NCBI GenBank assembly: GCA_027490195.1
Contig: JAIXYN010000090.1
Coordinates: 1-64,000, forward strand
From: Verrucomicrobiaceae bacterium
Lineage (GTDB): Bacteria > Verrucomicrobiota > Verrucomicrobiia > Verrucomicrobiales > Verrucomicrobiaceae
DNA: 64,000 bases
Direction: 5' to 3'
Shown: positions 18,222-34,357 of the stretch, piece after piece
Numbering within the stretch: the first letter of the stretch is position 1
Layout of the letters: each line of letters opens with the position of its first letter
Notes under the pieces: generated by a model
What the model saw: only the letters and a program-made list of their open reading frames with translations
What the model was told of the DNA's origin: nothing
The model's database searches: none
Translations under genes and position numbers: made by a program

Positions 18222-18238
18222 TCGTATGGATACTACCC

Positions 18239-18367: not shown

Positions 18368-18369
18368 TC
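18239..18369 (+). pseudogene. Truncated 5' copy of permease B (first 43 codons)
   Basis: ATG at 18240, 18 nt after the stop of permease A, begins a frame identical in protein to permease B (MLTPLDLKLFRDLGRMKGQI... through SIVLT). Nucleotide identity runs from 18239 to 18367. It then breaks off into unrelated sequence (PMMRLSS...), so the remainder of the permease, some 745 codons, is missing. This is the left scar of the AT-rich island. Confidence 0.85.
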
Positions 18370-18479
18370 CTATGATGCGACTGTCCTCCCCTCTCCGCGC
18401 AGTTGGGGTAAAATCACAGAAGGCAATCAGACACATTGTAAGTCAATGTTTTGCGATACCCAGGATTTACATAATGCCC

Positions 18480-18491
18480 GGCATGAATGGC
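18480..18491 (+). repeat. 12-bp direct repeat at left edge of the coding part of the island
   Basis: GGCATGAATGGC, repeated at 24601-24612 in the same orientation. The two copies lie 18 bp outside the first and 19 bp outside the last gene of the AT-rich block, so they may mark the ends of an inserted unit (target duplication or attachment core). Chance is not excluded. Confidence 0.45.
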
Positions 18492-18509
18492 ACTCAAAAA
18501 TAACAGGCT

Positions 18510-19886: not shown

Positions 19887-19941
19887 CTTTTCTTCGGAAT
19901 AAAACTTTAACCATCAGAGAAGCAACTAGTACAAACCTAAA

Positions 19942-20088
19942 ATGAAATCAATAATAAAACTAACATTAATCGCGGCTCTAATACATATTGGTAGCGAACT
20001 GGCATCCGCAAGTGTCCCAAAAAAGCTGTTTGGTGAGGGGGGGTATTGCACCCCTCCACCTCCACCTCCAACCACAGACGGAGAGTGA
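19942..20088 (+). CDS. 48-residue exported peptide with CTPPPPPP tail
   Basis: ATG at 19942 opens a short frame with a good signal peptide (MKSIIKLTLIAALIHIGSELASA) and a probable mature part of about 25 residues containing one cysteine (Cys36) followed by Thr and six prolines. Its start lies 55 bp from the divergent SdpBA-like fusion gene, which suggests a functional pair. I do not recognise the mature sequence. It could be a peptide substrate or a small structural peptide; the frame is short enough that chance must be kept in mind. Confidence 0.45.
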   Translation: MKSIIKLTLIAALIHIGSELASASVPKKLFGEGGYCTPPPPPPTTDGE

Positions 20089-20269
20089 GGCAAGCAGAAT
20101 TAATTGGTTTCGTTTAAGCTTTCCTGGAAGCAAAATTATGAGAATCATTCAAAGATTTCTGACCAGTTAAAATTTATCCCTTAATACGTTGTAGGATGAT
20201 TGAGTGGCCAGTTTTGGGTGACCGGGATTAATCATGAGAACTTTTCACACGTCAACCGCCTATTAATTC

Positions 20270-21523
20270 ATGAACATCAAATGCACAATCGCAACTTGGT
20301 TGGTATTGGCAGCTATAAACGCCAATGCATACGAGCATGGGTGTCCTCGCAACAGGATAGGTTTGGCGGACGTGTCTGGCGCGGCTAGCCTGTGGGTGGA
20401 TGTTCCGTTTGAACTTTCTGCCGTCGGGATTGAACTCCCCGTCGTGCTCCACTATCTTAGTGATCCAAGTAGATCGGCGCGTGGGATTATCGGTGTAAAT
20501 TGGCGCTTTCCTTTGCTTGATAGTGGGGTCGAGCAGGTTAATGAAAAAGTGGCTAGGATTAATCTCATCTCTGGTGCTCACGCCTACTTGGTGCGTGATA
20601 CGTCTGACCCTGACATTTGGACTTCTGTTGACTCTTCCTTGAAGGGAAAGGTTGAAGGAAAAGTGATGAAAATCACTTCGCTAAACGGATGGGGCTACAA
20701 ATATCGTGAGGGTCGTCTTGAGGAAATTACGACGCCTAAGGGGGATGGTTTTTTGTTTAAGCGGACTAAGGGGGTGATTGATTCAATAATCTCCCGTGGA
20801 GTGTCGGTGGCAAATTTTGAATATAATAACGAAGGGCTATTGCGCTTTTTTTCTATAGGTGATAAAATGCGTCTAGATTTCGGTTATTCTGAGTATCCGG
20901 TCATCACAAATGAAGGATTTGTCGTAAGGTTGGAGCGAGCAATGAGTCAAATTACAGTGAAAGCTAATGGGAAGGAACGTTTCTCGAAAAGTATTTCATA
21001 CTCGCCAAATTTAGACGAAAAAACAGTCATGCTTAGTTGTGATCCCGGCCTCTTTACAACAGACAAAAGCGAGGTCATTCATGATTTAATTACCGGTCAA
21101 TTAAAACGGGACTCTGTAAGCGCCTATCGCGTCGAAAGAGGAGCCGGTGGCATTTGGCCGAAGGTTATTCGGGAATGGAATGATGGATCAATTGAAAGCT
21201 ACTTTTTTGATACCAAGACGTACTCCGAGAAAATATGCGCAAAGGATGGCACTAATAGAGAAATGTTGTTTCACGGAGGAAGTGGTCCCAACTACCTCCT
21301 GCTGAAATCCATTAAAGACACCTCTGCTAGTGGTGAAATAAAGTCTGTATTTAATTGTTACAGGGCTGCTGATGGTTCAATTCTTCGATCTAGCCAATCA
21401 AAAAACGATGGCTGGTCAAACGAAATAAAAAACAGAGGTGCAGTCACCGAGGTATCTCTGAAGTCTCCGACTGGGAAAATCATCACCCTGAATTTCTTGA
21501 TGAATAAATTAAATAAAAAATAG
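20270..21523 (+). CDS. Exported RHS/YD-repeat-like N-terminal domain protein
   Basis: The 417-residue product starts with a signal peptide (MNIKCTIATWLVLAAINANA). The region around residues 40-85 (LPVVLHYLSDPSRSARGIIG, then NWRFPLLDSG) follows the pattern found at the start of RHS/YD-repeat wall-associated proteins. Later segments such as GWGYKYREGRLEEITTPKG and FEYNNEGLLRFF look like degenerate YD repeats. It lacks the long repeat cage, the RHS core motif and a toxin tip, so it is either a short relative or a truncated derivative. It lies in the island between the two SdpA/B-like sets, in AT-rich DNA. Function unknown; a cell-surface or secreted role is likely. Confidence 0.6.
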   Translation: MNIKCTIATWLVLAAINANAYEHGCPRNRIGLADVSGAASLWVDVPFELSAVGIELPVVLHYLSDPSRSARGIIGVNWRFPLLDSGVEQVNEKVARINLISGAHAYLVRDTSDPDIWTSVDSSLKGKVEGKVMKITSLNGWGYKYREGRLEEITTPKGDGFLFKRTKGVIDSIISRGVSVANFEYNNEGLLRFFSIGDKMRLDFGYSEYPVITNEGFVVRLERAMSQITVKANGKERFSKSISYSPNLDEKTVMLSCDPGLFTTDKSEVIHDLITGQLKRDSVSAYRVERGAGGIWPKVIREWNDGSIESYFFDTKTYSEKICAKDGTNREMLFHGGSGPNYLLLKSIKDTSASGEIKSVFNCYRAADGSILRSSQSKNDGWSNEIKNRGAVTEVSLKSPTGKIITLNFLMNKLNKK

Positions 21524-21529
21524 TACCAA

Positions 21530-21697
21530 ATGACTAAAGAGCATAAATTTTTAACGTACTTCCCGCTCGCGATAGGAGCAATGCTAATCATTGTCGCTAT
21601 GATTCATGGTGGAGAGGGTTACCACATACAGACTTGCAGTGGTCTAATATGCGGGTGCCTAAGCGCAATTGCCAGGATTATCGCGACTAAAGCTTAA
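21530..21697 (+). CDS. 55-residue hydrophobic peptide with CxxxxCxC motif
   Basis: ATG at 21530, 6 bp after the preceding stop, encodes MTKEHKFLTYFPLAIGAMLI followed by more hydrophobic residues, then a polar GGEGYHIQ turn and a C-terminal segment TCSGLICGCLSAIARI with Cys36, Cys41 and Cys43. The first half could be a signal or membrane anchor and the second a short cysteine-bearing hydrophobic peptide, the general design of the SDP toxin. Its close spacing to the genes on both sides (11 bp before the 21709 start) supports translation within one transcript. Immunity peptide or small membrane protein are alternatives. Confidence 0.5.
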   Translation: MTKEHKFLTYFPLAIGAMLIIVAMIHGGEGYHIQTCSGLICGCLSAIARIIATKA

Positions 21698-21708
21698 TTC
21701 TATTCATT

Positions 21709-22614
21709 ATGAGCTATTTAACAATGAACTGTCGAGCGAGCTTCGGTGTGGTGATTGCAATTACTATACATCTTTTTTGTATCGATAAGCTGGCAGCAGT
21801 CGAACCCACCGATGTAAAACAATTGTTGGATTATAATTTGCTCAAAAAGCAATTTCAAGATGGTTATACAGTGGAAGGCCCACAAACACCCGCCCAATAT
21901 TATGCAATTCACCTGCAGCCCAAGGGTGAATTTCGTTATGAAGCTAAGGTTTGTCAGACCGCAATGGGACAATTTGTGGAAACTCAGTTTGCCCGCTTGG
22001 TTAAATGGTCAAATGCTACTGGGCTACAAGAAGCCCGTATATCGACAGAGATAACAAGTCTAAAGATGGCGAATGTGCCGAAGTCCATGGCACCAAAGTT
22101 TGAGACGAAAGGATTTGTAACTCAGCAACTTGCACTGGGTACGGGCAGACTTCAGCGTCAAACTGTCAGCGAGGATTACATCACAAAAATGTCAATCCTG
22201 GGGATGGAAGAGGTCATCATTGATTCTTCTTCAAAGTTCAACGAAAACATTGTAAACGATCTTATAGTGCCGTTTGAATTTCCAGATCATCCACTAAAGA
22301 TTGGCGATACATGGAGTTACACGGTTTTTGCACAAAAAATTGAATGTAAAATTATTAGCATGGGCCAGCTCCGGGGGGATAAAGTGGCGGAAATTGAGAG
22401 GACGGGGAATTTTACAATGGATCTGCTTTCAGGGCTTTCAGGGCAGGTGACCACTGGATCTGCTACTAAGGAGACGATACCTTTTGTTGATAGGTCCTTA
22501 GTGCGTCTCGATAATGCCTTGCCACTTAGAGTGATTTCCAAGTCTGGCGCAGAAGGAAATACATTTTCAGGACTGTCGACGTTAGTCTTGGAACTACAGA
22601 ACAAACCGCAATGA
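21709..22614 (+). CDS. Exported protein of unknown function in the island
   Basis: A 301-residue protein with an N-terminal hydrophobic segment (about residues 10-28, ending near DKLAAVEP) that looks like a signal peptide. The rest is soluble, beta-rich in appearance, with no cysteine pattern or catalytic motif I recognise. The phrase PFEFPDHPLKIGDTWSY resembles the 'xxLKxGDxW' turn found in several periplasmic DUFs of this phylum. It sits 13 bp upstream of the 111-residue precursor-like gene, as if the first member of an operon running to 24581. Confidence 0.65.
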   Translation: MSYLTMNCRASFGVVIAITIHLFCIDKLAAVEPTDVKQLLDYNLLKKQFQDGYTVEGPQTPAQYYAIHLQPKGEFRYEAKVCQTAMGQFVETQFARLVKWSNATGLQEARISTEITSLKMANVPKSMAPKFETKGFVTQQLALGTGRLQRQTVSEDYITKMSILGMEEVIIDSSSKFNENIVNDLIVPFEFPDHPLKIGDTWSYTVFAQKIECKIISMGQLRGDKVAEIERTGNFTMDLLSGLSGQVTTGSATKETIPFVDRSLVRLDNALPLRVISKSGAEGNTFSGLSTLVLELQNKPQ

Positions 22615-22627
22615 TTGATACAAAAAA

Positions 22628-22963
22628 ATGAATACGAAAATAAATAACACATTTAGAAGTGCCGTTTGCACCATTTTAATGGTAGCTCTAATTGGAGGAG
22701 CTGGAAGTCAGGTAAGTGCTTCGCTTTCTCTGCATAACAAACCTTTGCCTTCTCACGTAAAGATTCCGGGCGCCGGGTTTTCGAAAGATGGTAAGATACT
22801 ACCAGATAAGGATGTAGCTCTTTGTTGGCCAGTTTGTTGTCTTGTCATAATGGTGGCTTATGGAATGTATACATGTTACTTTAATAGGTGCGAAAAACAA
22901 CAATACGGTGACACAAAAGATTCGCAAGAGAGACATGATGTGTTAATGGCGCAACTACCTTGA
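22628..22963 (+). CDS. 111-residue precursor-like protein, SdpC-like toxin candidate
   Basis: The protein starts with a signal peptide (to about residue 31, SQVSA), followed by a polar stretch of some 30 residues and then a hydrophobic Cys-rich core, ALCWPVCCLVIMVAYGMYTC (64-83), with Cys66, Cys70, Cys71, Cys83 and Cys88, and a charged tail. In Bacillus, SdpC is likewise a secreted precursor from which a hydrophobic peptide with a disulfide near its N-terminus is cut. The gene is immediately followed by the SdpA-like gene (2 bp gap) and then the SdpB-like gene, the same set as sdpABC in another order. Sequence identity to SdpC is not apparent; the proposal rests on gene context and peptide design. 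Confidence 0.6.
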   Translation: MNTKINNTFRSAVCTILMVALIGGAGSQVSASLSLHNKPLPSHVKIPGAGFSKDGKILPDKDVALCWPVCCLVIMVAYGMYTCYFNRCEKQQYGDTKDSQERHDVLMAQLP

Positions 22964-22965
22964 AT

Positions 22966-23679
22966 ATGAGGTGGCATTTGTCTAACAACAAGTATGTTAT
23001 TCGGGCGCAATATGGGTTAGGCGGTCTGTTGTGGTTTATCTATTGCTTACTCACTATCTTTACTGTCTTACCTGTCTCTCCTATACGTGCAAAATTAGAG
23101 TATTGGTATCTTTTTGATCTTTTCAAGATGCGGTTTGAACAAAACTGGACTTTTTTTACTCCACCATTGAAGGGCAATATCCTAATTGTGTACGACTTCT
23201 GGGAGTATTCTTCTGAGTCAAAAAATACTAAGCCTTGTGACTACTCCATTGAAGTCGTAAGTGAGACTAACGCTGCTAAGAGGCGTGACCCGTTTGCCTT
23301 TGGAACCGAGGTTTCTTCATACATTGTTGAAGGTAGTGCCCTGGTTACACAAAATCTCTTTGTTGAAATTAGGAAATTCTTGACACTAGAGTTGGGAAGA
23401 GTTCCTACCGACGATGAGCTCAAAGCTGAGATTGATAAGAACGAACAGAATTTTGGCAGTCTTCAAACCCTATATGGATATTCTAATGTTGTCATTAATG
23501 AAGTTGTGCGGCGAGGGGGGCGTAAACCTGCTTCATACCGATTTCGAATACTCCGTCAAGAAACACCTAAATTCATTAATCGCAAACAGCTTGTAGATCC
23601 AACTTATAGCCCACAAATTGTTATGATTTTTGAGTCAAGGGTGAGGGATGTTGTAAACTCATCCTCAATGTCACAATGA
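22966..23679 (+). CDS. SdpA-like membrane-anchored protein
   Basis: The 237-residue product has one N-terminal membrane helix (about 16-37), then FEQNWTFFTPP with Asn60-Trp61 and a following beta-strand ILIVYDFW. The helix plus QxWxFFxP layout is what I know from SdpA-family and DUF5819-like proteins that accompany HTTM proteins. The remaining 160 residues are soluble and should face outward. The frame opens with TTG at 22960, but ATG at 22966 is the natural start, 2 bp after the preceding stop. Its stop overlaps the start of the next gene in ATGA, so translation of the two is coupled. Expected role: partner of the HTTM protein in maturing or exporting a peptide. Confidence 0.6.
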   Translation: MRWHLSNNKYVIRAQYGLGGLLWFIYCLLTIFTVLPVSPIRAKLEYWYLFDLFKMRFEQNWTFFTPPLKGNILIVYDFWEYSSESKNTKPCDYSIEVVSETNAAKRRDPFAFGTEVSSYIVEGSALVTQNLFVEIRKFLTLELGRVPTDDELKAEIDKNEQNFGSLQTLYGYSNVVINEVVRRGGRKPASYRFRILRQETPKFINRKQLVDPTYSPQIVMIFESRVRDVVNSSSMSQ

Positions 23680-24581
23680 ATTACTTGTTTCGGAAAGCTG
23701 ATCATGCATTATTAATGCAATTAGAGTATCAGAGAGGATACCGTTATGTGCATGCTGCCTCGATGATATATATAGTATGTAAGTACCTACTGGTTTGGCC
23801 TTACATTGAAGTCTTGTTCAGTAAGAATAGCTTTCTCACTCCTGAGCGCAGTATTGGCCCTATAGTGACCGAATTACTCGGGACTACTCCCCAATTTTGG
23901 GTGGGTGTTCTGTTGATTTCATGCATCGCCAGTGCCTTTGTTCCTTCGAGGACTTTGGCTATTGTTATATATGCTATACATGAGTTGCTGATAACTGGTT
24001 CAGGCTATTATTCCAATGGAGGTGACAATTGGATGAGGCTTCTCCTTTTTTACTTTGTAATAGCACCACCAGTCGGCAGTTCAAATGGTGGGCGACTTTT
24101 GGCCTTAACTATACTCACGGCAAAATGTCACTTTTGTCTTATATTTTTGGTTTCTGCCTGCGGCAAACTTAACTCTGATTACTGGTACTCTGGCGTGGCT
24201 ACCTACTATGTTTTGGTGTCGGAAAGATTTATGGCTTTTACGTGGATTAAGCAAGCCGTTCAGAACGCGTGGTTCGTAAACCTCACGACGTACTACACGC
24301 TCGCTGTAGAGCTTGCTTTGCCATTTTTGCTTTGGTCAAGCAATAGAATATCGAGGCTTGTTATTGTTTTAGCCGCAATTACGCTGCATCTCGGCATAGC
24401 AATTTTCATGTCACTTTGGGCTTTTCAATTTCTTTTCATTTGTTGCTATCTACTGTTCTTCCAAAATGGGGAATTGGATGCTGCCACTCGACGATTTGAA
24501 GAGTTGAGACGTCGAATGTGGCGCTGGAGTGCTGCCTGGTGGGGCGCAGGCCGATTGGGGGACTCCTCCAGTTCATTGTGA
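23676..24581 (+). CDS. HTTM-domain (SdpB-like) polytopic membrane protein
   Basis: A 301-residue protein with about 7-8 hydrophobic segments, matching the size of SdpB. A polar NGGD at residues 114-117, after SGYYS and before a hydrophobic helix, parallels the NGGD of the fused protein at 18510 and fits the HTTM / vitamin-K-dependent carboxylase-like superfamily. SdpB is required in Bacillus for production of the mature SDP toxin. The ATG overlaps the stop of the SdpA-like gene by 4 bp. The C-terminus is Arg/Trp-rich and noticeably more GC-rich than the rest. It is the last gene of the likely operon 21530-24581. Confidence 0.65.
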   Translation: MNYLFRKADHALLMQLEYQRGYRYVHAASMIYIVCKYLLVWPYIEVLFSKNSFLTPERSIGPIVTELLGTTPQFWVGVLLISCIASAFVPSRTLAIVIYAIHELLITGSGYYSNGGDNWMRLLLFYFVIAPPVGSSNGGRLLALTILTAKCHFCLIFLVSACGKLNSDYWYSGVATYYVLVSERFMAFTWIKQAVQNAWFVNLTTYYTLAVELALPFLLWSSNRISRLVIVLAAITLHLGIAIFMSLWAFQFLFICCYLLFFQNGELDAATRRFEELRRRMWRWSAAWWGAGRLGDSSSSL

Positions 24582-24600
24582 AGCTAAAAAATTGTAGCCA

Positions 24601-24612
24601 GGCATGAATGGC
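24601..24612 (+). repeat. 12-bp direct repeat at right edge of the coding part of the island
   Basis: GGCATGAATGGC, same orientation as 18480-18491; see that entry. Confidence 0.45.
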
Positions 24613-24829
24613 TCTTAATTAAGTAGCCTTTCGAGATTTTTCGCGGTTAGGAATGTCCTGGAATTCATGATGCGGCTGTGTATTTGAGGGGCAACACGTG
24701 CTCTTCGGCCCGAAGCGCAAAAATGGGAGCGCGGCGCTTGTCGGAATCGGATGCATACTGCCCGAGGCTTCTGCTCCTAAAGCCACCTGGATGATGGGGC
24801 TTTGAGGCCATGGCACCGCTCGGGGGCTG

Positions 24830-24865
24830 CTTAATCTCATCTATTTTTGCAAAGCACGCGCATGA
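24830..24865 (+). pseudogene. Possible 3'-end remnant of a further FtsX permease
   Basis: In frame, these 12 codons read LNLIYFCKARA and a stop, comparable with the ends of permease A (LDLVSVLKARD, stop) and permease B (LDMVGVLKARD, stop). The stop is followed by exactly 18 nt before the ATG of permease B, as in the A-to-left-copy junction, and the two 18-nt spacers match at 12 positions. The preceding 250 bp (24582-24829) show no homologous sequence and no gene. Confidence 0.45.
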
Positions 24866-24882
24866 ACGTATCCATACGTCCG

Positions 24883-25011
24883 CATGCTCACCCCACTCGA
24901 TTTAAAACTCTTCCGCGATCTCGGTCGCATGAAGGGTCAGATCGTGGCGGTGAGTCTCGTCATGGCTTGCGGACTGGCGATGATGATCATGACGCGCAGC
25001 ATCGTGCTGAC
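24883..25011 (+). repeat. 129-bp direct repeat, right copy
   Basis: Partner of 18239-18367 (127 of 129 positions identical). This copy is continuous with the intact permease B. Confidence 0.9.
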
Positions 25012-27250
25012 GCTGGAAAGTACCCGGGATGCCTACTATCAGCGCTACCGCCTCGCGGATGTCTTTGCCTCATTAAAGCGTGCGCCGCTTTCGCTGGCCG
25101 ACCGCGTCGCAGAGATCCCCGGCGTGGCTGCGGTGGAGGCCCGGGTGGTGGTCGATGCCACGCTCGATCTCGTGGGCATGACGGAGCCCGCGACAGCACA
25201 TCTGGTATCTCTCCCCAAAGGGCGCTCGCAGACACTCAACCAGGTTTTCATCCGTCAGGGCCGCATGCCCCAGCCCGATGAACGACGTCAGGCCGTAGTG
25301 AGTGAATCCTTCGCGCTGGCAAACAAGCTGCAGATTGGCGACAGCCTGATCGCCATTATCAACGGCCACCGCGACATTATCATTATCTGCGGCATCGGCC
25401 TTTCGCCTGAGTTTGTCTTTGAAGCGCGGCCCGGTCAGACCCTGCCGGACAACAAACGCTACGGCGTCTTCTGGATGAACTACGAATCCATCGCTGTGCC
25501 CTACGATCTCGACGGCGCGTTCAATGATCTCTGCGTCGATCTTTCACCCGGCGCGCATTCTGGACCGGTGATGGCGGAGATCGACCGCCTGCTGCTGGGC
25601 TACGGCGCGCAGGGTGCCTACACGCGGCTCGAGCACAACAGCGCGCAGCGCCTGGATGATGAACTGCGCGTCGTTCGTGCGCTCTCCGTGGCCTACCCCG
25701 TGGTCTTCCTCAGTGTGGCGGCCTTCATGGTAAATGCGGTGCTTGCGCGGCTCGTGCGCCTGCAGCGCGAGCAGATCGCGCAGCTTAAGGCGCTGGGCTA
25801 TTCCTCTTGGCAAGTCGGCCGTCACTACCTGAACTACGCCCTAGTCATTGTCGTGCTGGGCACTCTGATCGGTGGTGTGGTGGGACGTTGGATGGGCGGC
25901 GCACTGGTAAGCATCTACGATCTTTTTTTCCGCTTCCCCGCACTCAACTTCCGCATGGATTACAGTGCCTTGGGCATTGCTTTGGTCGTCAGTACCGTGG
26001 CCTCATTTCTTGGCGTCATCAGCGTCGTCTGGATGGCCGTCAAGCTACCGCCCGCCGAGGCCATGCGGCCAGAGCCACCTGCGGACTTCAAGCCTTCGAT
26101 GATCGAGCGCATGGGCCTCACCCGTGGCAGTAGCCCGGCGCTGCGCATGGCCTTGAGAAACATCGAGCGTCGTCCCGTGCAGGCGCTGTTCACGGTTTTC
26201 GGTCTCGCCTTGGCCACAGGGTTAATGGTGTTGCCAGGCTCCATGGCGGACAGCATCGACTACATGCTCACTTATCAATGGAACGACGTACAGCGGCAGG
26301 ATGTGGTCGCCTTTTTCGCCGAGCCCAGTTCGGGAGATGCGCTGCACAATCTGGAGCAGCTGCCCGGCGTACAGCGGGCCGAGCCAGTCCGTGCCGTGCA
26401 GGCGCGCATTCACTACGGCCACCATTCACGCAAGATCGCTGTCACAGGCCTGCCCCGTGATGCCGATCTCAACCGCCTGCTCGATGCAGAAAGGCGGCTC
26501 ATCGTGCTGCCGGAGGAAGGCATCGTGATGTCCGCGCAGCTCGGCAAAATCCTCGGCGCACGCATTGGTGATGTGGTTCAGGTGGAGGCTCTCGAAGGCC
26601 GGCGCGAAACGATCGGGGTCCCTATCCGTGGTTTTATGGAAGACTTCGCCGGCATCTCCGCCTTCATGGACATCAGCGCCCTGCATCGCCTCATGCGTGA
26701 AGGCGACACCGTGAGCGGGGCCTACATGACCGTGGATCAAAACCGCTGGAGCGACTTCATGCGCGCTGTGAAGGACACGCCGCGCATCGCCATCACCCTG
26801 GTCAAACAGGACCAGCTCGATTCCTTTCGCAGCACCACCGGCCAGAGCATCGGCATCCTACGCAAGCTCTACCTCGTGCTCGCCATCGTTGTGGCCTTTG
26901 GCGTCGTTTACAACAGCGCCCGCATCGCCCTCTCAGAGCGCAGCCGCGACCTCGCCACCCTGCGCGTCGTCGGCTTCACCCAGCGCGAAGTGGCCGGTGT
27001 GCTGCTCGGCGAGCTTCTGCTCCTCATCGCCGCCGCCATCCCCGCAGGCCTCCTCTTTGGCAAAGGCCTCGCCACCTTCATCATTTCTAAAGTCAGCACC
27101 GAAACCATCCGCATGCCCCTCGTCATCAGCCTGCACACCTACACCATGGCCGTCCTCGTCGTCGCCGCCGCCTCATGCGCCTCCTTCATCGTCGTCAGCC
27201 GCATGCTGCGCCAGCTCGACATGGTGGGCGTGCTGAAGGCGAGGGATTGA
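24884..27250 (+). CDS. FtsX-type ABC transporter permease (permease B)
   Basis: A 788-residue paralogue of permease A with the same architecture: N-terminal helix, periplasmic domain, FtsX domain (about 265-395), second helix, second periplasmic domain and C-terminal FtsX domain with VYNSARIALSERSRDLATLR (positions about 675-694). Long identical blocks with permease A include LVRLQREQIAQLKALGY and MALRNIERRP. The two were probably adjacent, with an 18-nt spacer, before the island arrived, and may form a heterodimer served by a separately encoded ATPase. The gene is intact. Downstream, 27251-27521 contains nothing I can identify. Confidence 0.85.
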   Translation: MLTPLDLKLFRDLGRMKGQIVAVSLVMACGLAMMIMTRSIVLTLESTRDAYYQRYRLADVFASLKRAPLSLADRVAEIPGVAAVEARVVVDATLDLVGMTEPATAHLVSLPKGRSQTLNQVFIRQGRMPQPDERRQAVVSESFALANKLQIGDSLIAIINGHRDIIIICGIGLSPEFVFEARPGQTLPDNKRYGVFWMNYESIAVPYDLDGAFNDLCVDLSPGAHSGPVMAEIDRLLLGYGAQGAYTRLEHNSAQRLDDELRVVRALSVAYPVVFLSVAAFMVNAVLARLVRLQREQIAQLKALGYSSWQVGRHYLNYALVIVVLGTLIGGVVGRWMGGALVSIYDLFFRFPALNFRMDYSALGIALVVSTVASFLGVISVVWMAVKLPPAEAMRPEPPADFKPSMIERMGLTRGSSPALRMALRNIERRPVQALFTVFGLALATGLMVLPGSMADSIDYMLTYQWNDVQRQDVVAFFAEPSSGDALHNLEQLPGVQRAEPVRAVQARIHYGHHSRKIAVTGLPRDADLNRLLDAERRLIVLPEEGIVMSAQLGKILGARIGDVVQVEALEGRRETIGVPIRGFMEDFAGISAFMDISALHRLMREGDTVSGAYMTVDQNRWSDFMRAVKDTPRIAITLVKQDQLDSFRSTTGQSIGILRKLYLVLAIVVAFGVVYNSARIALSERSRDLATLRVVGFTQREVAGVLLGELLLLIAAAIPAGLLFGKGLATFIISKVSTETIRMPLVISLHTYTMAVLVVAAASCASFIVVSRMLRQLDMVGVLKARD

Positions 27251-27521
27251 GGGCCTTTCCCCTTCAAACGCAACCATCCCAACTGGCCCGCCGGCTCTCC
27301 TGGGCGTGCGAGCGTTCATGGCGTAAAGGTAGGGCGGTTCAAGAGTTCCCATTCCGCATCACTGAGATCGGTGTCTTAGCCTGCTGGCTGGTAAGTTTTC
27401 GCTTCCATTGACCACCCTGCCTCAACTCCTTTTCACTCGCTACAATCTTTTGCCGGATAGACTCTAAGCAATGTGTTCAATTTATGGTGTCTGGCTTTTG
27501 ATTAGAAAGATTCGTGGCGGG

Positions 27522-29993
27522 CTATTTCACAAATTCACTGAACAAAAGTGCCCAGTCTTCAGGCAGAACGAAACGCTGTAGTGGATCGGCCTTTACTGGC
27601 TCGATTGAACCGGTCTCGCTGACACGACAACCTGCGATTTGATGAGCAATGGCCACAATAGCAGACACTTGGTATTTACTTAGCACGGCCTGCGATGAAG
27701 GAAGCCTCGGCCTGAAATTGAGGCTGCCAGAAAGCCGTTTCCCGGCTTTTCGGTCAAAATAAGTGATTCTTGCTTCACCTGCACCGTCTTTTTTGTCATC
27801 GACGATCAGCCAAAAGACATCGCCAGAATGATCTACAAAACCTAACCCCTTCAATACGTCTCTTTCAGAGCTGAAGATGTCGTTCGTCCTAGCTTGAATA
27901 TACGAACCATCTTTTGATGCTATCTTCACCTCTCTTGACCTGCCTGCGATGAAGCATGAAAGTGTGATTTGACCGTTGTTTGACGATGCTTTTGCATCTT
28001 CGAGGTTCTCTTCACCATGAAAAAAGTCGTTCAGATCGTCACCTAGAGCCGGGCTACTCAAGGCTGCGCTCTTGATGAATTTGCAAAGCATGCGATCTTG
28101 CCACTTTGTTCCCCATCGCGCTTCTTGAAGCCCTTTAACCCAAGGATTTGTGACGGTTCCACCTTCGTAATATATGCAAGGAAGCACCTCTTGGGTGGCA
28201 AAATCAGTGATCAACCATGTTGATTCAACGTAAGGCTTCAATTGAGGGGTGGGGAATTCTGCTTCTGTTAGTAAATGCAGCGGATCAGGCGAGCGAATAT
28301 CTAAATCGCTACTGAAAGGCTTTTTGCATTTCCAAGCTCCTCCTCGACTTGCGACCCACATGAAGAGACCTGCATCCTCATTTGATGCCATGCTGTACCC
28401 TTCATTGGCGGAAAATGAATCGGCTGTCACCAAGTATGTCAATGATTCGGTGTCGGCCATTACGATCGAAACCTCTGCCTCCTGCCCTGTTGAGCATCCA
28501 AAACTAGCCTCCAGGGCCAGCATCTCGTAACGTCCGTCGTTACTCCAGCCAACTGAATGTAGAGTTCCAAAAAGGCTTTCTTGGCGTTCATCATCTTGGG
28601 AGGCGCGCAAATCCTGACCGCCTTGATCCGCACGTTTTGGGTTTAACTCTGAATGGTGACCATTTTCAACAGACCATGCCAGTATTCTTGAAATCACAAA
28701 TTCTGATTCGTGATTGCTGCCAATGATCCGACATACCGAGTTGTTGGGGCTAATAGCTATAGAAACAGAAGCACTCTCCTTCATCGGCGCTTCTTCTGGT
28801 TCATGATTTGTGTTTTCACCGGCCAATTGCCTCTTGGAATCATGAAGCATGCCATCCTCGTGCTGTTCCCAAACCGAGTTAACCCATTGCAGACGTAACA
28901 GCTTTCCGGAGCGCAGGACCACACAAATCCAATCACCGTTCGTAGTAGAGTCAGCGTCCGCTACTTCTTCGTGGAACAGCACTTCTTGAGACCTAACTCG
29001 CTGTGGGTCTTCGACCACTAGCTTACGCGAGTCAGGTTCTCCAAGCGCCAGATTGAGCCGCTTTCTCCGAGAACTGTGATGAAGATTTTGATTCGGCTGC
29101 GCTGATCGCTTTGGCAATATTCGGCGATTTTGTGAATTCCAAATAGGATGCTCAATACCTGAGTCAGGAGTGTTTGCATCATCAACCGGCAGTATCCAGG
29201 TGCGCTCGGCGATGGCCATCCATAAACCAACGCGGGCCGAATAGTCATCTGGGGTCAACTCAAACGCTTTGGCAAACCGAGCTACCGCTTCTGCCCCCTT
29301 GCCTTCGTTGATCAAATCGGCACCACTTTCTATCTGAGCACGAGCTGTTTGAACGATCAAAGCTCTTTGTCGGGCTTCCGAGTCTCTCCAAAAGCCTATC
29401 GTCAGACCAAGTAGCAGCATCAAGAGGAGTATGACGCCCACGATCCATCGAGTTCTGCGGGAGGCTTTTCTTAGCTCCTGGAAATCGTTCAGAAGCTTTT
29501 CGACGATCAGAGATGACGGCGATCCTATCTCGAAAGCAGAATCCGAATCATACGCGCATATGTTGTCGGTCGTGCTTCCAAGTAAAGTTAGTAATGTCGA
29601 TTTAGGATTGTCTTGATGGGAAAGACTTTTTCTGGTGCCAACGGGGACAATCAAGCCGGTGGAGTGTCGTCTTTTGAACTCGACAATTTCATTTCTCAAA
29701 TGCATAGCCTCCTCGTCGTGAGCATGCGGAGTGACGACAACAATCAACCGAGTGGTCTTTGCCAAGGCTCGGGCCTGCATGGAAGGAAGACTCCCACCGG
29801 CATGGTAGTGTCGGACGTCGAGAAAGCAGTCCAGTTTTTTCCCACCGCTTGTAAGCGCATTGTAGAGAGAGAGAGCATATGCCTTCCCGTCCAAAGACCG
29901 GTGAGCGATGAAATAGTCATACCCAAAGAACCAGTCCAGCAGCCGATGGTGCCAAGTTGAGAAATTGGTGCGGTTAGTCGCTTGATCTTTCAT
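27522..29993 (-). CDS. TIR domain, transmembrane helix and C-terminal repeat-like region
   Basis: An 823-residue protein from ATG 29993 (an in-frame TTG is at 30014). Residues about 24-150 form a TIR domain: box 1 YDYFIAHRS, the loop CFLDVRHYHAGGSL, then TRLIVVVTP and LRNEIVEF, whose Glu102 is a candidate NADase catalytic residue. A single helix WIVGVILLLMLLLGLTIGFW (about 183-202) follows, then a short TPR-like stretch (GKGAEAVARFAKAFELTPDD) and about 550 residues of beta-rich sequence resembling a degenerate WD40/propeller. The TIR is predicted cytoplasmic and the rest periplasmic, so it may sense an outside signal. Codon use is less GC-rich than in its neighbours, which hints at transfer. 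Defence or stress signalling is plausible, not shown. Confidence 0.7.
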   Translation of the reverse strand: MKDQATNRTNFSTWHHRLLDWFFGYDYFIAHRSLDGKAYALSLYNALTSGGKKLDCFLDVRHYHAGGSLPSMQARALAKTTRLIVVVTPHAHDEEAMHLRNEIVEFKRRHSTGLIVPVGTRKSLSHQDNPKSTLLTLLGSTTDNICAYDSDSAFEIGSPSSLIVEKLLNDFQELRKASRRTRWIVGVILLLMLLLGLTIGFWRDSEARQRALIVQTARAQIESGADLINEGKGAEAVARFAKAFELTPDDYSARVGLWMAIAERTWILPVDDANTPDSGIEHPIWNSQNRRILPKRSAQPNQNLHHSSRRKRLNLALGEPDSRKLVVEDPQRVRSQEVLFHEEVADADSTTNGDWICVVLRSGKLLRLQWVNSVWEQHEDGMLHDSKRQLAGENTNHEPEEAPMKESASVSIAISPNNSVCRIIGSNHESEFVISRILAWSVENGHHSELNPKRADQGGQDLRASQDDERQESLFGTLHSVGWSNDGRYEMLALEASFGCSTGQEAEVSIVMADTESLTYLVTADSFSANEGYSMASNEDAGLFMWVASRGGAWKCKKPFSSDLDIRSPDPLHLLTEAEFPTPQLKPYVESTWLITDFATQEVLPCIYYEGGTVTNPWVKGLQEARWGTKWQDRMLCKFIKSAALSSPALGDDLNDFFHGEENLEDAKASSNNGQITLSCFIAGRSREVKIASKDGSYIQARTNDIFSSERDVLKGLGFVDHSGDVFWLIVDDKKDGAGEARITYFDRKAGKRLSGSLNFRPRLPSSQAVLSKYQVSAIVAIAHQIAGCRVSETGSIEPVKADPLQRFVLPEDWALLFSEFVK

Positions 29994-30078
29994 AGCGGAG
30001 ATTGGCAAATGCAATTTCTGTGAAATTGAGGTCGGTTGCGTCGCTGACTGATCTTGTGATAATCCACATGAGCAAATT

Positions 30079-31731
30079 TCACAGCAGCCCCAATGCCGTC
30101 TCGATATTCTGCTGGCGGCCTTCCATAAGGGGCTTGCCGGCGTGGACGTAGGTGGTGTCTTTCATGAGCTTGGCGAGGCCGACATCACGCTGGTAGCCAG
30201 AGACAAGGTGGTCGTAAGGGATGGTGGGTTTGGCGGGCGGGGTGGCGCGGTAGTTGCCGCTGTAAAAGTAGCCGTGCACGACGCCGGCGAGGACCTTGGC
30301 TTGGCGGACGATGTTGTCCTTGATCTTGTCGAGACGGAAGAGGCCCATGTAGAGGCGGCGGGTGCCGCCCGTGAGGTCCTTGTTCTTCAGGTGGCCGAGG
30401 TAGAGGAAGAAGTGCTCGAGGTTTCGGGCAATGGGCATGGGCTTGTTCCATGCGGGGGCATCCGGACCGTTCCAGTCACGAATGCGCTCTGGAAGAGGAA
30501 GCAGGCCGCGCTCGCCTTCGGAGTGCCTGTGATCAGGGTCCACCTTACCATCACTGCGCAGTCCCGCCTCGCAGTAGGTGAGCACCCACGCATCCTCACG
30601 GGTGAGCGGGCAGGTGGCGGCTCCATACTTCTGGGTGAGCCTGGCGTTCACCGCGGCAATGAGGCGGGTGAGTTCCTTGTCGTTTTGCTTCAGGAACTGC
30701 TCTTTGGCGAGATCCTTCGTGACGAACACAAAGTCGTCTTCCTTGGGTGCAATGGTGCTGGCGACAATCTTCTCAGTCACAGCGCTGGGGACCGGATTGG
30801 AGATCGTGATGGCATACTCGTCGATGGCGTCGGCATAGGCGGCGGCCAGCTCGTCTTTAATCGCAGCGACGGCGGCAAATTCGGCCTCGTTGTCGATGAA
30901 GAAGGGCTCGCCCAGGACGATGACGGCTTTGGTCATGGCAAGCTGGTCGCCGCCACGATCTGAGCTGGTCTTTGGCTTGATCTTGCGGTCACGCAGGCCG
31001 AGGCGGACGAGGAAATGCTTTTGCAGAATGCCGGCGAACTTTTTCCCTTCGATGCTGGTGTGGAAATAAAGCACCTCACTGCCGCCCGCTTTGGTGTCGG
31101 CGGCGTTGGCGTGCAGGCTGATGACGAAATTGGGGTTCAGGGCGTTCGTCTTGGCTGGTAGGGCGCGGCGTCCTTCATCATTCCCAGGCTCGCGATTAAT
31201 GGTGATGATGCGGGCGTTTTTAACCTTGGCCTGAATCATGGCGGCGAGTTCTTTGTTGAAGGTGAACTCTGAGACTTTTTTGCCGTTCAGACGGCCGGTG
31301 GCTCCGGGAGCATCCGGGTGATGGCCGATGTCGAGCACGCAGAGCGGCTGTGGATCGGAGGCCTTGATCTCGAGCGGCTGCTCTTCGGCAGGAACGGGTT
31401 CCGGCTCGCCCACGATCTCGTCACGCACCTCGCGGGCGATTCCTAGGACGCGGCCATGGATGCCTTTATTGTTATCCACCAGCCGGGCAAAGACGCTCGA
31501 AGCGAGCGGCGGCACGGACTCGACGAGCGAGCAGTCGAGAATCACATCCTCGCTGGGCAGGCCACGGATCGCCGCAAAGAGGCCGTCACGCTCACGCGCC
31601 TCAGGAAACGGATTCTTTTTGGCTTCCTGAACGGAAGTGCCCTCAGGAGATGAGGAGAGGAAAAACTCCCCTTCAGAGGTGCGGAAGACATTGTTGGCGA
31701 GGAAGCGGCCGAAGTGCAGGGGCTGTTTCAT
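30079..31731 (-). CDS. N-acetylmuramoyl-L-alanine amidase (Amidase_3) with extra N- and C-terminal domains
   Basis: The 550-residue product has a zinc amidase domain at about 130-310: VLDIGHHPDAPGA (His137), Glu155 in KVSEFTF, SLHANA (His207) and the late catalytic Glu275 in VLGEPFF. These are the residues expected for cleavage of the bond between muramic acid and L-alanine. No signal peptide is visible, and the first 120 residues form an unrecognised domain. The C-terminal 200 residues (from about DAWVLTYCEAG, with RHSEGERGLLPLPERIRDWN) resemble a lysozyme-like fold in pattern, a suggestion only. Lack of a signal peptide raises the possibility of a non-classical export route or a cytoplasmic role. 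Confidence 0.75.
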   Translation of the reverse strand: MKQPLHFGRFLANNVFRTSEGEFFLSSSPEGTSVQEAKKNPFPEARERDGLFAAIRGLPSEDVILDCSLVESVPPLASSVFARLVDNNKGIHGRVLGIAREVRDEIVGEPEPVPAEEQPLEIKASDPQPLCVLDIGHHPDAPGATGRLNGKKVSEFTFNKELAAMIQAKVKNARIITINREPGNDEGRRALPAKTNALNPNFVISLHANAADTKAGGSEVLYFHTSIEGKKFAGILQKHFLVRLGLRDRKIKPKTSSDRGGDQLAMTKAVIVLGEPFFIDNEAEFAAVAAIKDELAAAYADAIDEYAITISNPVPSAVTEKIVASTIAPKEDDFVFVTKDLAKEQFLKQNDKELTRLIAAVNARLTQKYGAATCPLTREDAWVLTYCEAGLRSDGKVDPDHRHSEGERGLLPLPERIRDWNGPDAPAWNKPMPIARNLEHFFLYLGHLKNKDLTGGTRRLYMGLFRLDKIKDNIVRQAKVLAGVVHGYFYSGNYRATPPAKPTIPYDHLVSGYQRDVGLAKLMKDTTYVHAGKPLMEGRQQNIETALGLL

Positions 31732-32482
31732 GGGATAATTCGAGGCTGATGGTTTGGAGTCTTAAAAGAGAGATTTTTTTGACGGCCAACGTGGTGCTGG
31801 TGGTTTTGACCCGAACGACATCAATTCGTATTCTAGAACACATTCGGTTTCACAGCCATCCCATAGGGTCTTGATGTTTTTGAAGAGAAGTGGGCTGACT
31901 AAGGGCGCGAAGCGGCTTGATTTAGAGTGCAAATTCTAAAGTAAAATACACGCCAGTAACTCAGTCAGCAAGTCATCAACACTAAAAAAAGATGCAAGAA
32001 AAATAATCCATACACTTAGTGGGGGTGGATGGTACAACGTATTGATTTACAATGCGTCTCATGGATCTATGTACCTCCTCACTGGCGCTTACGATGGCGG
32101 CAGAGGGGGGCGGTATTCATGCGTTGCAGTCCCATCATCTTCGTTCACTCCAATTCGTCAGCCTTTCAACGGCAGTGCCGATGGCTCTTTTTGGCGACTA
32201 CAGCGCCAACTTTGATGAAGCTGCCCAGTTTGCGGGCATGCCTGATACCATCGTCCCCTGGGCCACGCCAGCGGAGGCCGACAAGCCCACTGCTCTGCTG
32301 CCTCCGCCTGCGACCGTGGAGGCCGAGCCAAAAAAGGGCTCTTTGGAAAGATGAAGGGGTGGTTTCATCAATCGAATCCGGAATGGCGGGGCGGTCCTGA
32401 TTGATTCGGCGTTTCTCAAGCCGCTGCGGAATTCAACCGGGTGCCTTCAAAATGCTTGGCCTCGTCTGCGTTTTGAGGTGTA
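31732..32482. other. Long intergenic stretch with one doubtful ORF
   Basis: A 751-bp region between divergent genes. The part 31860-32050 is AT-rich and may hold promoters. A 100-codon frame at 32052-32354 (+) begins MRLMDLCTSSLAL and ends in a Pro/Glu/Lys-rich tail. It has no recognisable domain, and a competing frame overlaps it, so I do not call it a gene with confidence. No RNA gene is recognisable. Confidence 0.4.
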
Positions 32483-34357
32483 ATGCCACGCATGAGCCAG
32501 ACTGCTTCTCACAACCCGGCCTTTGCCCTCGTGGCACAGCGTGTCCAGGTGTGGGTGGCGCTGCTGCGCTGGCTTGCGGTGCTGCGCATGACGCTGATTC
32601 CGGCCTCGCTGGTGCTGGTGCTCCTCATGCTGGCGGCGCTGCGTGGGTCAGGGGTGGTGTTTTCACCGTGGCTGGGTCTGGTCCTGTGGCTGGCAGGCTG
32701 TCTTGGCTACGTGTGGTGGCAGCGTCCCGGTGAGTTCAGCGCGCTGGCCTTGTGGGATCAGGCGGCGGGGCGACGCGAGGCTTTCGCCTCCGCCTGGTGG
32801 TTTGAGAAGCATGCGGAAGAAGGAGAGACTGCGCGGGCGCATATTGACGCGCAGCGTGAGGTTTTGGCGCAGGCATGGCCCGCTTCATTGAAGCAAGACT
32901 TGCCGTTACGGCCGGACCGCTGGCTCGCTCTACCGCTGCTCATTGCGATTCTCGGCAGCTTCATCAGCATTGTCATGGCCCCGCCTTCTGAGGTGGTGGT
33001 GATGGATCAGGACATGACGCGCAAAGCCGCTGAAGAGGCGAAGAAGCTGGCGCAGACCGACTGGGAAAAGAAGAAACTCGCGGGTCTCAAGGATGAGGAG
33101 TCCAAGCAGGTGGATGATTTGAAACAGAAGCTGCAAAAGACCGCTTCAGTGCTCGCCAATGCGGGGGGCAAGGACGCGCGCGATGTGCTGGCCGAACTGG
33201 AGAAGCGTGCGCGTGAAGCGGAGAAACTCGCGGAGGAACTGGGTAACGGCAAGGAGCCCTGGGCTTCTGAAAAACTCATCGATGCGTTGCGCCAGCATGC
33301 CGACACAGCAGATCTGGGGGACGCCGTGGCTGCAAAGAATGCCCAAGCCGCTTCGCAGGCCGCTGAGGCGCTGGCCACCCAGCTCAAATCACCCCAGTTC
33401 AATGCTGAAGCGAAAGAGCGGATGAATGAAACGCTCAAGGATGCGCAGCAGCAGGCTGACAAGGAGGATCGCAAACGTGCCGTAGGTCAGAACGTTCTCG
33501 CGGCGGGAGATCAGATGCAGCAGGGCAAACCGGCAGGTGCTGGCGAAGAATTTCAAAAACTCGCCGACAAGCTGCGCGACCTCGCGCTGCGTGAGCAGTC
33601 GCGCAAGGAGCTGCAGCAGCTTGCGCAGCAGTTGCGTGATTCTGGCAGCAACATCGCCGGACAGCAGGACAGCAGCAATGGGGCGATGCAGCAAATGAGC
33701 CAAGCAGGGCAGGGGGATTCCTCCCAGCAGCAGGGGCAGCAGAGTGTACCGCAGACAGGGCAGTCGCAGAATGGCCAGCAGATGCTCAATCCACCGGGCA
33801 TGGGCCAAGCAGGGCAGCAAAACCAAATGCAGCAGCCTCAGGAAGGACAAGGGCAGGGGCAGCAACAGCAGCCTATGATGAGTATGGGCCAGGGGCAGCC
33901 GGGACAGGCTGGCAAGCAGGGCCAGCCCGGCGATGGCCAGCCGATGCTACTCGCACCAATTCCTGGAGGAGCCAAGCCGGATGACAAGGCCCCCACGATC
34001 ATCATTACAGGAGAAGGCGCGCCGCCTGACCCCAATGGTCCTATGCTCGCCATGCCCGGCAATGGTCTGCCCCCCGGCAAAGGCAAAGCTGACCTTAACA
34101 ATGCCCCCACTACCAAGCAGAGCACCGACAATCAAAGAGTGGTCCGCGCCCAGCAGGGCAACGAGGGCCAGAGCACCGTGCGCAGCGTCGAAGGTGGTGT
34201 GCGCAATGAACAGTCCACCCGCACCTCCACACAGACCGCGCTCGATGTGATCCAAGCTGAAGAAGCCGCCCTAGATGAGGCCGCCCTGCCACCCGCACGT
34301 CGAGAACAGGTGCGGCGCTACTTCAACGAATTGCGGAAACGATTTGAGGGGAAGTGA
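32483..34357 (+). CDS. Gln/Gly-rich coiled-coil membrane protein (DUF4175-like)
   Basis: The 624-residue product has two close membrane helices (about 36-56 and 60-75) and a third near 150-168, then a long charged coiled coil (about 175-400), a low-complexity Gln/Gly/Met/Pro region (about 400-520) and a conserved-looking end, LPPARREQVRRYFNELRKRF. This layout recalls the DUF4175-like proteins that accompany MoxR/DUF58/VWA genes in this group of bacteria, but none of those partners is in the window. A GAGGTG lies only 2 nt before ATG 32483; a second in-frame ATG at 32492 has better spacing. Function unknown. Confidence 0.6.
   Translation: MPRMSQTASHNPAFALVAQRVQVWVALLRWLAVLRMTLIPASLVLVLLMLAALRGSGVVFSPWLGLVLWLAGCLGYVWWQRPGEFSALALWDQAAGRREAFASAWWFEKHAEEGETARAHIDAQREVLAQAWPASLKQDLPLRPDRWLALPLLIAILGSFISIVMAPPSEVVVMDQDMTRKAAEEAKKLAQTDWEKKKLAGLKDEESKQVDDLKQKLQKTASVLANAGGKDARDVLAELEKRAREAEKLAEELGNGKEPWASEKLIDALRQHADTADLGDAVAAKNAQAASQAAEALATQLKSPQFNAEAKERMNETLKDAQQQADKEDRKRAVGQNVLAAGDQMQQGKPAGAGEEFQKLADKLRDLALREQSRKELQQLAQQLRDSGSNIAGQQDSSNGAMQQMSQAGQGDSSQQQGQQSVPQTGQSQNGQQMLNPPGMGQAGQQNQMQQPQEGQGQGQQQQPMMSMGQGQPGQAGKQGQPGDGQPMLLAPIPGGAKPDDKAPTIIITGEGAPPDPNGPMLAMPGNGLPPGKGKADLNNAPTTKQSTDNQRVVRAQQGNEGQSTVRSVEGGVRNEQSTRTSTQTALDVIQAEEAALDEAALPPARREQVRRYFNELRKRFEGK

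What the first reader, a model, noticed from the sequence alone, without database searches (positions are those of the whole stretch)
27522..29993. TIR domain anchored to the membrane with a large outer repeat region
The protein joins a TIR domain (with candidate Glu102), one helix, a TPR-like stretch and about 550 residues of propeller-like sequence. The order would place the sensor outside and the TIR inside, unlike most TIR defence proteins, which are soluble. Lower GC and its position next to the island suggest transfer.
Basis: partly seen in the sequence, partly recalled or inferred. Interest (0 to 1): 0.55.

Follow-up and report, generated by a model that had tools for sequence, protein, structure and literature searches.

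The report
Membrane-anchored TIR sensor protein
A bacterium carries a probably acquired gene for a protein that spans the membrane, with a likely NAD-cutting immune (TIR) domain inside the cell and a large, variable, probably sensing part outside; some relatives of the gene sit among anti-virus defence genes, so it looks like a little-studied bacterial counterpart of membrane immune receptors.

Summary
Mostly right. The gene (27522-29993, minus, 823 aa from ATG) encodes a TIR fold (SARM1- and SPARTA-like, Z 14.7-14.9), one strong transmembrane helix (about 183-202), a short helical stretch and about 560 more residues. Glu102 aligns with the Glu of SARM1's WVHKE and is invariant in 25 of 25 family rows. 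The 'propeller' is unproven here: no Pfam hit, poor models. Relatives carry WD40, TPR, LRR or metallo-beta-lactamase-like modules in the same place, so TIR - TM - exchangeable module is a real, rare family. Charge bias puts the TIR inside. The gene is GC-poor and absent where congeners have its flanking genes side by side. Of 24 relative loci, 9 have another TIR, SLOG-cluster-2 or '156-aa adaptor' gene nearby, against 0 of 27 control loci; in genome G115 the gene lies beside complete Gabija. The window itself has no such neighbour. Best reading: a single-pass membrane receptor with TIR NADase output in conflict or defence; a new variant of known bacterial TIR NADases. No activity, ligand or phenotype is shown; ten paper searches found no description of such bacterial proteins.

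The parts
27522..29993 (-). TIR-TM protein gene, 823 aa from ATG (alternative TTG at 30014, 830 aa)
29469..29930 (-). TIR fold, residues 22-175
29688..29690 (-). codon of Glu102, the predicted catalytic glutamate; E in 25 of 25 rows
29388..29447 (-). transmembrane helix, about residues 183-202, part of one long predicted helix (161-229)
29199..29321 (-). short TPR-like helical stretch, about residues 225-265
   Evidence: weak
27525..29198 (-). C-terminal module, residues 266-823, probably extracytoplasmic; fold unproven (strand-rich low-confidence models)
30079..31731 (-). codirectional gene 85 bp upstream: N-acetylmuramoyl-L-alanine amidase (Amidase_3, residues 132-304) without a hydrophobic N-terminal signal; relation to the TIR protein unknown
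27340..31996 (.). stretch with TIR and amidase, absent where congeners have FtsX2 and gene 32483 side by side; boundaries approximate (left similarity ends at about 27255 against L067 and 27339 against L068; right similarity starts at about 31997 against L068 and 32190 against L065)
24884..27250 (+). FtsX2 permease, conserved left flank
32483..34357 (+). conserved right flank, gene 32483

Best explanation
A single-pass membrane receptor with an enzymatic TIR output. Shown by sequence: an N-terminal TIR with intact predicted catalytic glutamate, a TM helix, and a large C-terminal part at a place where relatives carry different modules. Inferred: the C-terminal part lies outside the inner membrane and senses an envelope event (phage adsorption, a foreign toxin or contact, or damage); binding clusters the protein; the clustered TIRs inside cleave NAD+. 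The output is either NAD+ depletion and growth arrest, or an ADP-ribose-type signal read by SLOG-cluster-2 proteins, which this genome encodes on other contigs. Its job is most likely conflict or antiviral defence.
For: TIR fold and Glu102; Glu102 E in 25 of 25 rows; hydrophobic helix behind the TIR in 25 of 25, 24 over threshold, with charge bias 20:3 and 2 ties; exchange of the C-terminal part: the window's sister L022 (support 98/96) has a TPR-like C-terminus with no detectable similarity to the window's, and starred branches force at least 4 changes of the propeller label (several labels by eye). 9 of 24 relative loci have another TIR, SLOG2 or adaptor gene, 0 of 27 control loci (seeds came from some of the same loci). 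Pfam or PADLOC names nearby: SLOG cluster2, SIR2, CHAT, HET, patatin, LCAT, and in L081 GajA 2.6e-222, GajB 1.5e-203, caspase, LmuA/Avs1a-type MBL. Own genome: 18 TIR_2 places and 2 SLOG2 places. Patchy occurrence and low GC.
Against: In the 64-kb window no second TIR, SLOG2 or adaptor gene is found, and of 10 window proteins scanned none is a PADLOC hit beyond E 0.59 for one FtsX; 15 of 24 relative loci show none of the three either. The C-terminal fold and ligand are unknown. Four residues before Glu102 the window has His where SARM1 has Trp. The window protein, alone of 23 scanned, does not match PDC-S66. No activity data.
Confidence: 0.5

Rival explanations
1. Signal producer rather than NAD destroyer: the TIR makes a cyclic or linear ADP-ribose product that activates SLOG-cluster-2 and adaptor-linked lipase, protease or SIR2 effectors, as in Thoeris but with a membrane-spanning sensor.
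For: SLOG2 beside 4 of 24 relatives and the adaptor beside 4 of 24; own genome has adaptor + TIR-SLOG2 on C64 and TIR + SLOG2 on C29; adaptor fused to a patatin-domain protein in L027 and to other long ORFs in L147 and L148; Thoeris precedent (passages of PMC11312562).
Against: In the window's genome these genes are on other contigs; of 387 genomes only two (G000, G076) have both the adaptor and a TIR-TM match, and sequences of both genomes were in the seed alignments (adaptor: G000; TIR-TM: G000 and G076). At most 8 candidates per genome were scored in those two searches, so the counts are lower bounds.
Confidence: 0.3
2. Envelope-damage or cell-wall sensor linked to the neighbouring amidase: the outer part monitors the wall, and the TIR slows metabolism or the signal-less amidase acts in self-lysis.
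For: Amidase gene 85 bp upstream and codirectional; a second TIR-TM locus, L040, also has an Amidase_3 neighbour, in divergent orientation; neither begins with an obvious signal peptide (for the window; L040 by eye).
Against: Seen at 2 loci only and noticed after the fact; blastp of the window amidase against the 195 neighbour ORFs found none at E 0.01 (it missed L040's too, and not all neighbours were scanned with Pfam); the two amidases are distantly alike (28% over 200 aa, E 0.003); the window amidase has GC3 0.76 like the host genes, the TIR gene 0.48, so they may have different origins.
Confidence: 0.12
3. Non-enzymatic TIR scaffold that recruits partners, as in many animal TIR adaptors.
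For: TIR domains can act as scaffolds (starts of the abstracts of PMC7075850 and PMC8494770, seen in the listings).
Against: Glu102 is E in 25 of 25 rows and the best solved sequence matches are SARM1, named NAD(+) hydrolase.
Confidence: 0.1
4. Reverse topology or fully cytoplasmic protein with a membrane-attached helix; the module then senses cytoplasmic molecules, like the repeats of TIR-STAND proteins.
For: WD40 repeats are often cytoplasmic (general knowledge); C-terminal location was not tested directly; three members, L022 among them, have the opposite charge bias; L027, L041 and L043 have further segments over 1.6 in their C-terminal parts.
Against: Charge bias 20:3; a single hydrophobic span in the window protein; single members score weakly to envelope families such as TolB, PorW and BamB-type PQQ_2.
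Confidence: 0.12

Closest known systems
SARM1-type and bacterial TIR NADases (SARM1, AbTir, BtTir, PdTIR)
   Same: TIR fold and aligned glutamate; family profile hits SARM1 at 2.5e-15 and AbTIR (8g83) at 1.1e-11
   Different: I know of no TM helix and outer module behind the TIR in these (recalled, not tested)
Thoeris (ThsB TIR sensor + ThsA effector)
   Same: TIR as infection sensor making a nucleotide (PMC11312562 passages); SLOG2 and a ThsA-like SIR2 gene beside some relatives; 19 of 23 members match ThcB4 at E 1e-3 or better
   Different: No ThsA-like protein among the 10 window proteins scanned; the window's own ThcB4 match is E 0.034, 13 bits against a cut-off of 220; the sensor would be membrane-spanning
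Animal Toll-like receptors / IL-1R
   Same: One TM helix, outer module, inner TIR (inner/outer inferred here)
   Different: Order reversed (TIR first); predicted catalytic Glu kept; no sign of common descent of the whole architecture
Bacterial TIR-STAND-WD40/TPR proteins
   Same: TIR first, repeats last; several in the same genome by eye
   Different: A TM helix stands where the NTPase would be; 0 of the other 17 TIR_2 ORFs of this genome have a hydrophobic segment directly behind the TIR
Dictyostelium TirC (PMC13142454, passages seen)
   Same: Membrane-tethered TIR NADase of bacterial origin; full length tolerated in amoebae, toxic without the tether
   Different: N-terminal tether, no large outer module; eukaryote; full length toxic in E. 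coli and yeast
PADLOC candidate PDC-S66
   Same: 22 of 23 scanned members match at E 1e-3 or better
   Different: In the 8 members inspected the match covers only the TIR (e.g. 149-230 of 282); the window protein itself does not match

Membership tests
TIR NADase | TIR fold | tested here: met
TIR NADase | glutamate at the SARM1 catalytic position (that this Glu is catalytic is recalled) | tested here: met
TIR NADase | NAD+ cleavage | not testable with these tools
   needs assay
Thoeris | ThsA-type effector gene beside the TIR gene | tested here: not met
   10 window proteins against PADLOC, no ThsA; only the genes scanned there
Thoeris | full-length ThsB/ThcB match | tested here: not met
   window: ThcB4 E 0.034, 13 bits, cut-off 220; no ThsB in PADLOC
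Toll-like receptor / IL-1R | outer domain N-terminal, TIR C-terminal | tested here: not met
   TIR residues 22-175, TM about 183-202
TIR-STAND (NLR-like) | central NTPase | tested here: not met
   no Pfam NTPase up to E 1; TM directly after the TIR
TIR-TM-module family (defined here) | TIR, then a hydrophobic helix starting at residue 155-206, then another part | tested here: met
   relatives were selected with a GYDxFI pattern, so that motif's invariance is imposed
WD40/beta-propeller protein | propeller repeats in the C-terminal part | tested here: inconclusive

The most novel reading that the evidence does not exclude
Bacteria have their own transmembrane TIR receptors: an exchangeable outer sensor, one TM helix and a cytoplasmic TIR NADase, whose nucleotide product is read by SLOG-cluster-2 proteins and passed by a conserved ~156-aa adaptor to lipase, CHAT-protease or SIR2 effectors. 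That would be a multi-part membrane-to-cytosol immune pathway, not described in the papers found by the ten searches, and mirrored in order to animal Toll-like receptors.
Probability: 0.25. Interest if true: 0.78.

Novelty: new variant of a known kind. Interest (0 to 1): 0.52.

Why it matters
Most known bacterial TIR defences are soluble (general knowledge) and some notice phage parts already inside the cell, such as capsid protein in staphylococcal Thoeris (PMC11312562, passages). A TIR enzyme driven from outside the membrane would mean that some bacteria respond at the envelope, before or during entry, and would give a simple one-protein system in which to test how a TIR is switched on through a membrane helix. 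The exchangeable outer modules suggest a fast-changing recognition repertoire.

Tried and rejected
Structure of the C-terminal part: full-length AlphaFold2 with 13 rows gave pLDDT 25-47 there, and the part alone a mean of 32.6; neither supports a propeller call. Folds were searched only with the full-length model, which barely tests the low-confidence part; no fold search was run with the C-terminal model. hhalign of the window's single C-terminus against those of 24 relatives: best probability 1.0 percent, so no homology shown, not even to L009/L081.

PADLOC as a label: PDC-S66 matches 22 of 23 members (not the window), through the TIR only in the 8 inspected; rejected as a membership. Retron-TIR (E 1e-5, 24.5 bits against 600) covers only the TIR; so do ThcB4 matches by score. 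Plasmids: one weak TIR match. Viral contigs: none of 45 candidates is a relative. Four further places match the TPR-like stretch of secretin-type proteins (label by eye), not relatives. The amidase as a partner: seen at 2 loci only.

Caveats on counts. Control loci are stretches around FtsX genes and amidase hits, all from the window's phylum, while relatives come from several phyla. All four SLOG2 loci and all four adaptor loci counted there supplied seeds of those profiles, as did five of the seven TIR loci of the TIR profile; the adaptor itself came out of an all-against-all comparison of the neighbours, and the SLOG2 and TIR hits were confirmed with Pfam (L022's TIR is under the cut-off). 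A rough second yardstick: at this TIR-rich genome's own density (18 TIR_2 and 2 SLOG2 in 6.98 Mb), 270 kb would hold about 0.7 TIR and 0.08 SLOG2 genes. In one search several module labels were given by eye (L023, L026, L031, L041, L044, L081 and the window itself); the propeller label alone is not more clustered than shuffles (6 changes, shuffled mean 7.6, as low in 66 of 500).

Full report
What is there. On the minus strand, 27522-29993, one ORF encodes 823 residues from an ATG; a TTG 21 bases upstream would give 830. Its first part matches Pfam TIR_2 at E 6.9e-6, 27.0 bits against a cut-off of 28; the genome-wide search scores the same place 30.1 bits, over the cut-off. AlphaFold2 with 13 aligned rows folds residues about 20-265 mostly with pLDDT 66-89 and the rest below 50. 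The confident part aligns with SPARTA TIR (Z 14.9, 2.7 A, 127 residues), human SARM1 (Z 14.7) and the E100A mutant of plant RUN1 bound to NAD (Z 14.5), over residues 22-175. By sequence alone the single TIR finds solved TIRs only weakly (best E 0.036), but a profile of 25 family members finds SARM1 first (E 2.5e-15), and its alignment puts the family's invariant glutamate on the E of SARM1's WVHKE. That this is the catalytic Glu642 is recalled; a SARM1 E642A entry bound to NAD+ is among the matches. Glu102 is E in 25 of 25 rows, and Asp59 and Leu47 are invariant too; Gly24, Tyr25, Asp26, Phe28 and Ile29 also, but those lie in the search pattern. Four residues before Glu102 the window has His where SARM1 has Trp.

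One hydrophobic helix follows (mean hydropathy 2.65 at residues 183-184; nothing else above 1.4 outside 165-215). In the model it is part of one long helix, 161-229. Behind it come two short helices that look TPR-like and about 560 residues with no known family. I could not confirm a propeller for this protein.

The family. A pattern scan of one genome each for 84,980 bacterial and archaeal species, guided by a four-row alignment, gave 77 candidates and 23 relatives, in Verrucomicrobia, Planctomycetota, Alpha- and Gammaproteobacteria, Aquabacterium, Pyxidicoccus, Croceivirga and two unclassified bacteria (the class of some named genera is from general knowledge). The one pattern used contains GYDxFI, so the scan is blind to other TIR-TM proteins. 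With the window and L009/L081 (one locus), all 25 have a hydrophobic helix starting at residue 155-206, over the 1.6 threshold in 24 and 1.51 in L024; L027, L041 and L043 have further segments later. K+R in the 20 residues before the helix exceed those in the 20 after in 20 of 25, are fewer in 3 (L022, L034, L039) and tied in 2 (a sign test on 23 gives 0.0005, ignoring relatedness). This favours TIR inside and the rest outside.

What follows the helix differs. Of the 24 relatives 20 were scanned with Pfam (L029, L030, L031 and L041 were not). WD40 repeats pass the cut-off in L024, L028, L034, L037, L038 and L039; propeller matches under the cut-off occur in L027, L035 and L036, PQQ_2 under the cut-off in L042; LRR passes in L025, TPR in L032, TPR under the cut-off in L022, HEAT under the cut-off in L043; L023, L026, L033, L040, L044 and L081 show no named module beyond the TIR. 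PADLOC adds TPR for L029 (2.5e-9) and LmuA (1.1e-26) and Avs1a (3.6e-11) type metallo-beta-lactamase for the C-terminus of L040. In the TIR tree the window pairs with L022 (98/96), whose C-terminus shows no detectable similarity to the window's, and starred branches force at least four changes of the propeller label (some labels by eye, and the label is not more clustered than in shuffles). So the outer part is exchanged. TIR ORFs with a hydrophobic segment at 154-207 also appear outside the GYD type (L155, two in L156, L157, L158, L159).

Within the window's phylum the family is rare: 3 of 387 genomes with the window TIR as query; with the profile, matches that reach the TM part (model position 184 or beyond of 189) occur in G000, G115, G076 (two) and G303, 4 of 387, a lower bound because at most 8 candidates per genome were scored. 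In the first search of 56 genomes the TIR part was found only in G000 and G052 (same order), and in none of the 34 congeners. The organism is probably a verrucomicrobium: G052's contig has the length and the TIR protein of a record named Verrucomicrobia bacterium (L002 and L022).

Genomic setting. Two FtsX-type genes flank the low-GC island at 18.2-24.9 kb. In 8 of 16 congener stretches the matched ends of the two are 20-23 bp apart; two others have 1.3 and 3.9 kb between them; in six no adjacent second copy was seen in the stretch. Separately, FtsX2 and gene 32483 are 49-149 bp apart in 5 of 16; two (L065, L071) have 5.3 kb of other genes there; in the other nine gene 32483 was not found in the stretch. 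None of the 16 stretches has the TIR gene at E 1e-8. In the window this gap is 5.2 kb with TIR and amidase; window positions 32190-32700 align at 89.6% with L065 and 31997-32174 at 83% with L068, remains of what stands there in other congeners. So FtsX2 is bordered by two variable sites. TIR GC is 48.9% (GC3 0.48), the amidase 60.4% (0.76), so the two may have arrived separately.

Neighbours of relatives. An all-against-all comparison of 195 neighbour ORFs of the 23 loci showed recurring families. Profiles for TIR, SLOG cluster 2 and a ~156-aa protein hit genes near the TIR-TM gene in 9 of 24 relative loci (270 kb): other TIR in 7, SLOG2 in 4, the 156-aa protein in 4; 0 of 27 control loci (277 kb) had any (seeding caveat under Tried and rejected). 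15 of 24 have none. Pfam and PADLOC name SLOG cluster2 and TIR_2 in L029, L035, L038 and L081, ThsB_TIR in L039 and L081, HET and LCAT in L029, CHAT in L035, SIR2 (ThsA-like) in L038 and patatin in L027. In L081, from a genome of the window's family, the TIR-TM gene stands between a TIR-SLOG2 gene and a complete Gabija pair (GajA 2.6e-222, GajB 1.5e-203), followed by a caspase-like gene and an LmuA/Avs1a-type MBL. The 156-aa protein has no Pfam family in the two copies scanned. In the window's own genome it stands directly before a TIR-SLOG2 fusion on contig C64 (its TIR_2 match is under the cut-off), and a TIR + SLOG2 pair lies on C29. It occurs in 7 of 387 genomes of the phylum (same lower-bound caveat).

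The window's genome holds 18 TIR_2 places, 16 over the cut-off. Several of the other 17 look like TIR-NTPase-repeat proteins by eye; none has a hydrophobic segment directly behind the TIR.

Mechanism. Shown: parts, order, intact predicted catalytic residue, invariance, exchange of the C-terminal part, variable genomic site, defence neighbours of some relatives. Inferred: topology, sensing outside, clustering through the helix, NAD+ cleavage, and the downstream step (depletion or an ADPR-type signal to SLOG2 readers). I put the NADase-receptor-in-conflict reading at 0.5. The main gap is that the window locus itself has no defence neighbour among what was scanned.

Literature. Ten searches listed no paper that I could recognise as describing bacterial TIR-TM-module receptors; most listed papers were seen only as titles and starts of abstracts, the library lacks most subscription papers, and domain databases may list the architecture. 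Passages were read in PMC8195603, PMC7159879, PMC9153377, PMC8866957, PMC7075850, PMC11312562 and PMC13142454. PMC9153377 says that TIR proteins in prokaryotes and other kingdoms can carry short additional transmembrane regions, and that plant and bacterial TIRs can be attached to an NTPase with LRR, WD40 or TPR repeats. [quoted passage not shown] In PMC13142454 an amoeba TIR NADase of bacterial origin is tolerated in amoebae with its membrane helix and toxic without it, an analogue for restraint by the membrane.

Verdict. A real, probably acquired, membrane-anchored TIR protein of a rare and under-described family; new variant of a known kind; interest 0.52.

Noticed in passing
window 18222-24883: Low-GC (41-46% in 2-kb windows) stretch between two FtsX genes whose matched ends are 20-23 bp apart in 8 of 16 congener stretches; contains an HTTM-domain gene (18510-19886) and four ORFs without a significant Pfam family.
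   Followed up: partly
L025:5125-5604, L039:774-1271, L035:10061-10606, L027:8769-11447, L111:7570-8040: A ~156-aa protein without Pfam family in the two copies scanned, found beside or fused to TIR, SLOG2 and patatin-type genes.
   Followed up: partly
L147:7039-8577 and 12682-15558; L148:9372-10937: The 156-aa domain fused to long ORFs; one kind looks DUF2235 lipase-like by eye (recalled, not scanned), beside a TIR-SLOG2 fusion and patatin-like ORFs (by eye) in G076.
   Followed up: no
L081 (G115:C4:190000-209000): Dense island: ThsB-type TIR, TIR-pentapeptide, TIR-SLOG2, TIR-TM, Gabija, caspase, LmuA/Avs1a-type MBL.
   Followed up: partly
window 30079-31731: Amidase with no obvious signal peptide; its C-terminal third looks lysozyme-like by eye (not supported by Pfam). 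A Devosia TIR-TM locus (L040) also has an Amidase_3 + Peptidase_M15 neighbour.
   Followed up: partly
G000, 18 places: The genome is rich in TIR domains (18 matches, 16 over the cut-off).
   Followed up: partly
L068:5191-11417: After FtsX2 another congener holds a 1833-aa ORF followed by a 46.8% GC ORF of 238 aa; possibly a large surface protein with a partner gene (by eye).
   Followed up: no
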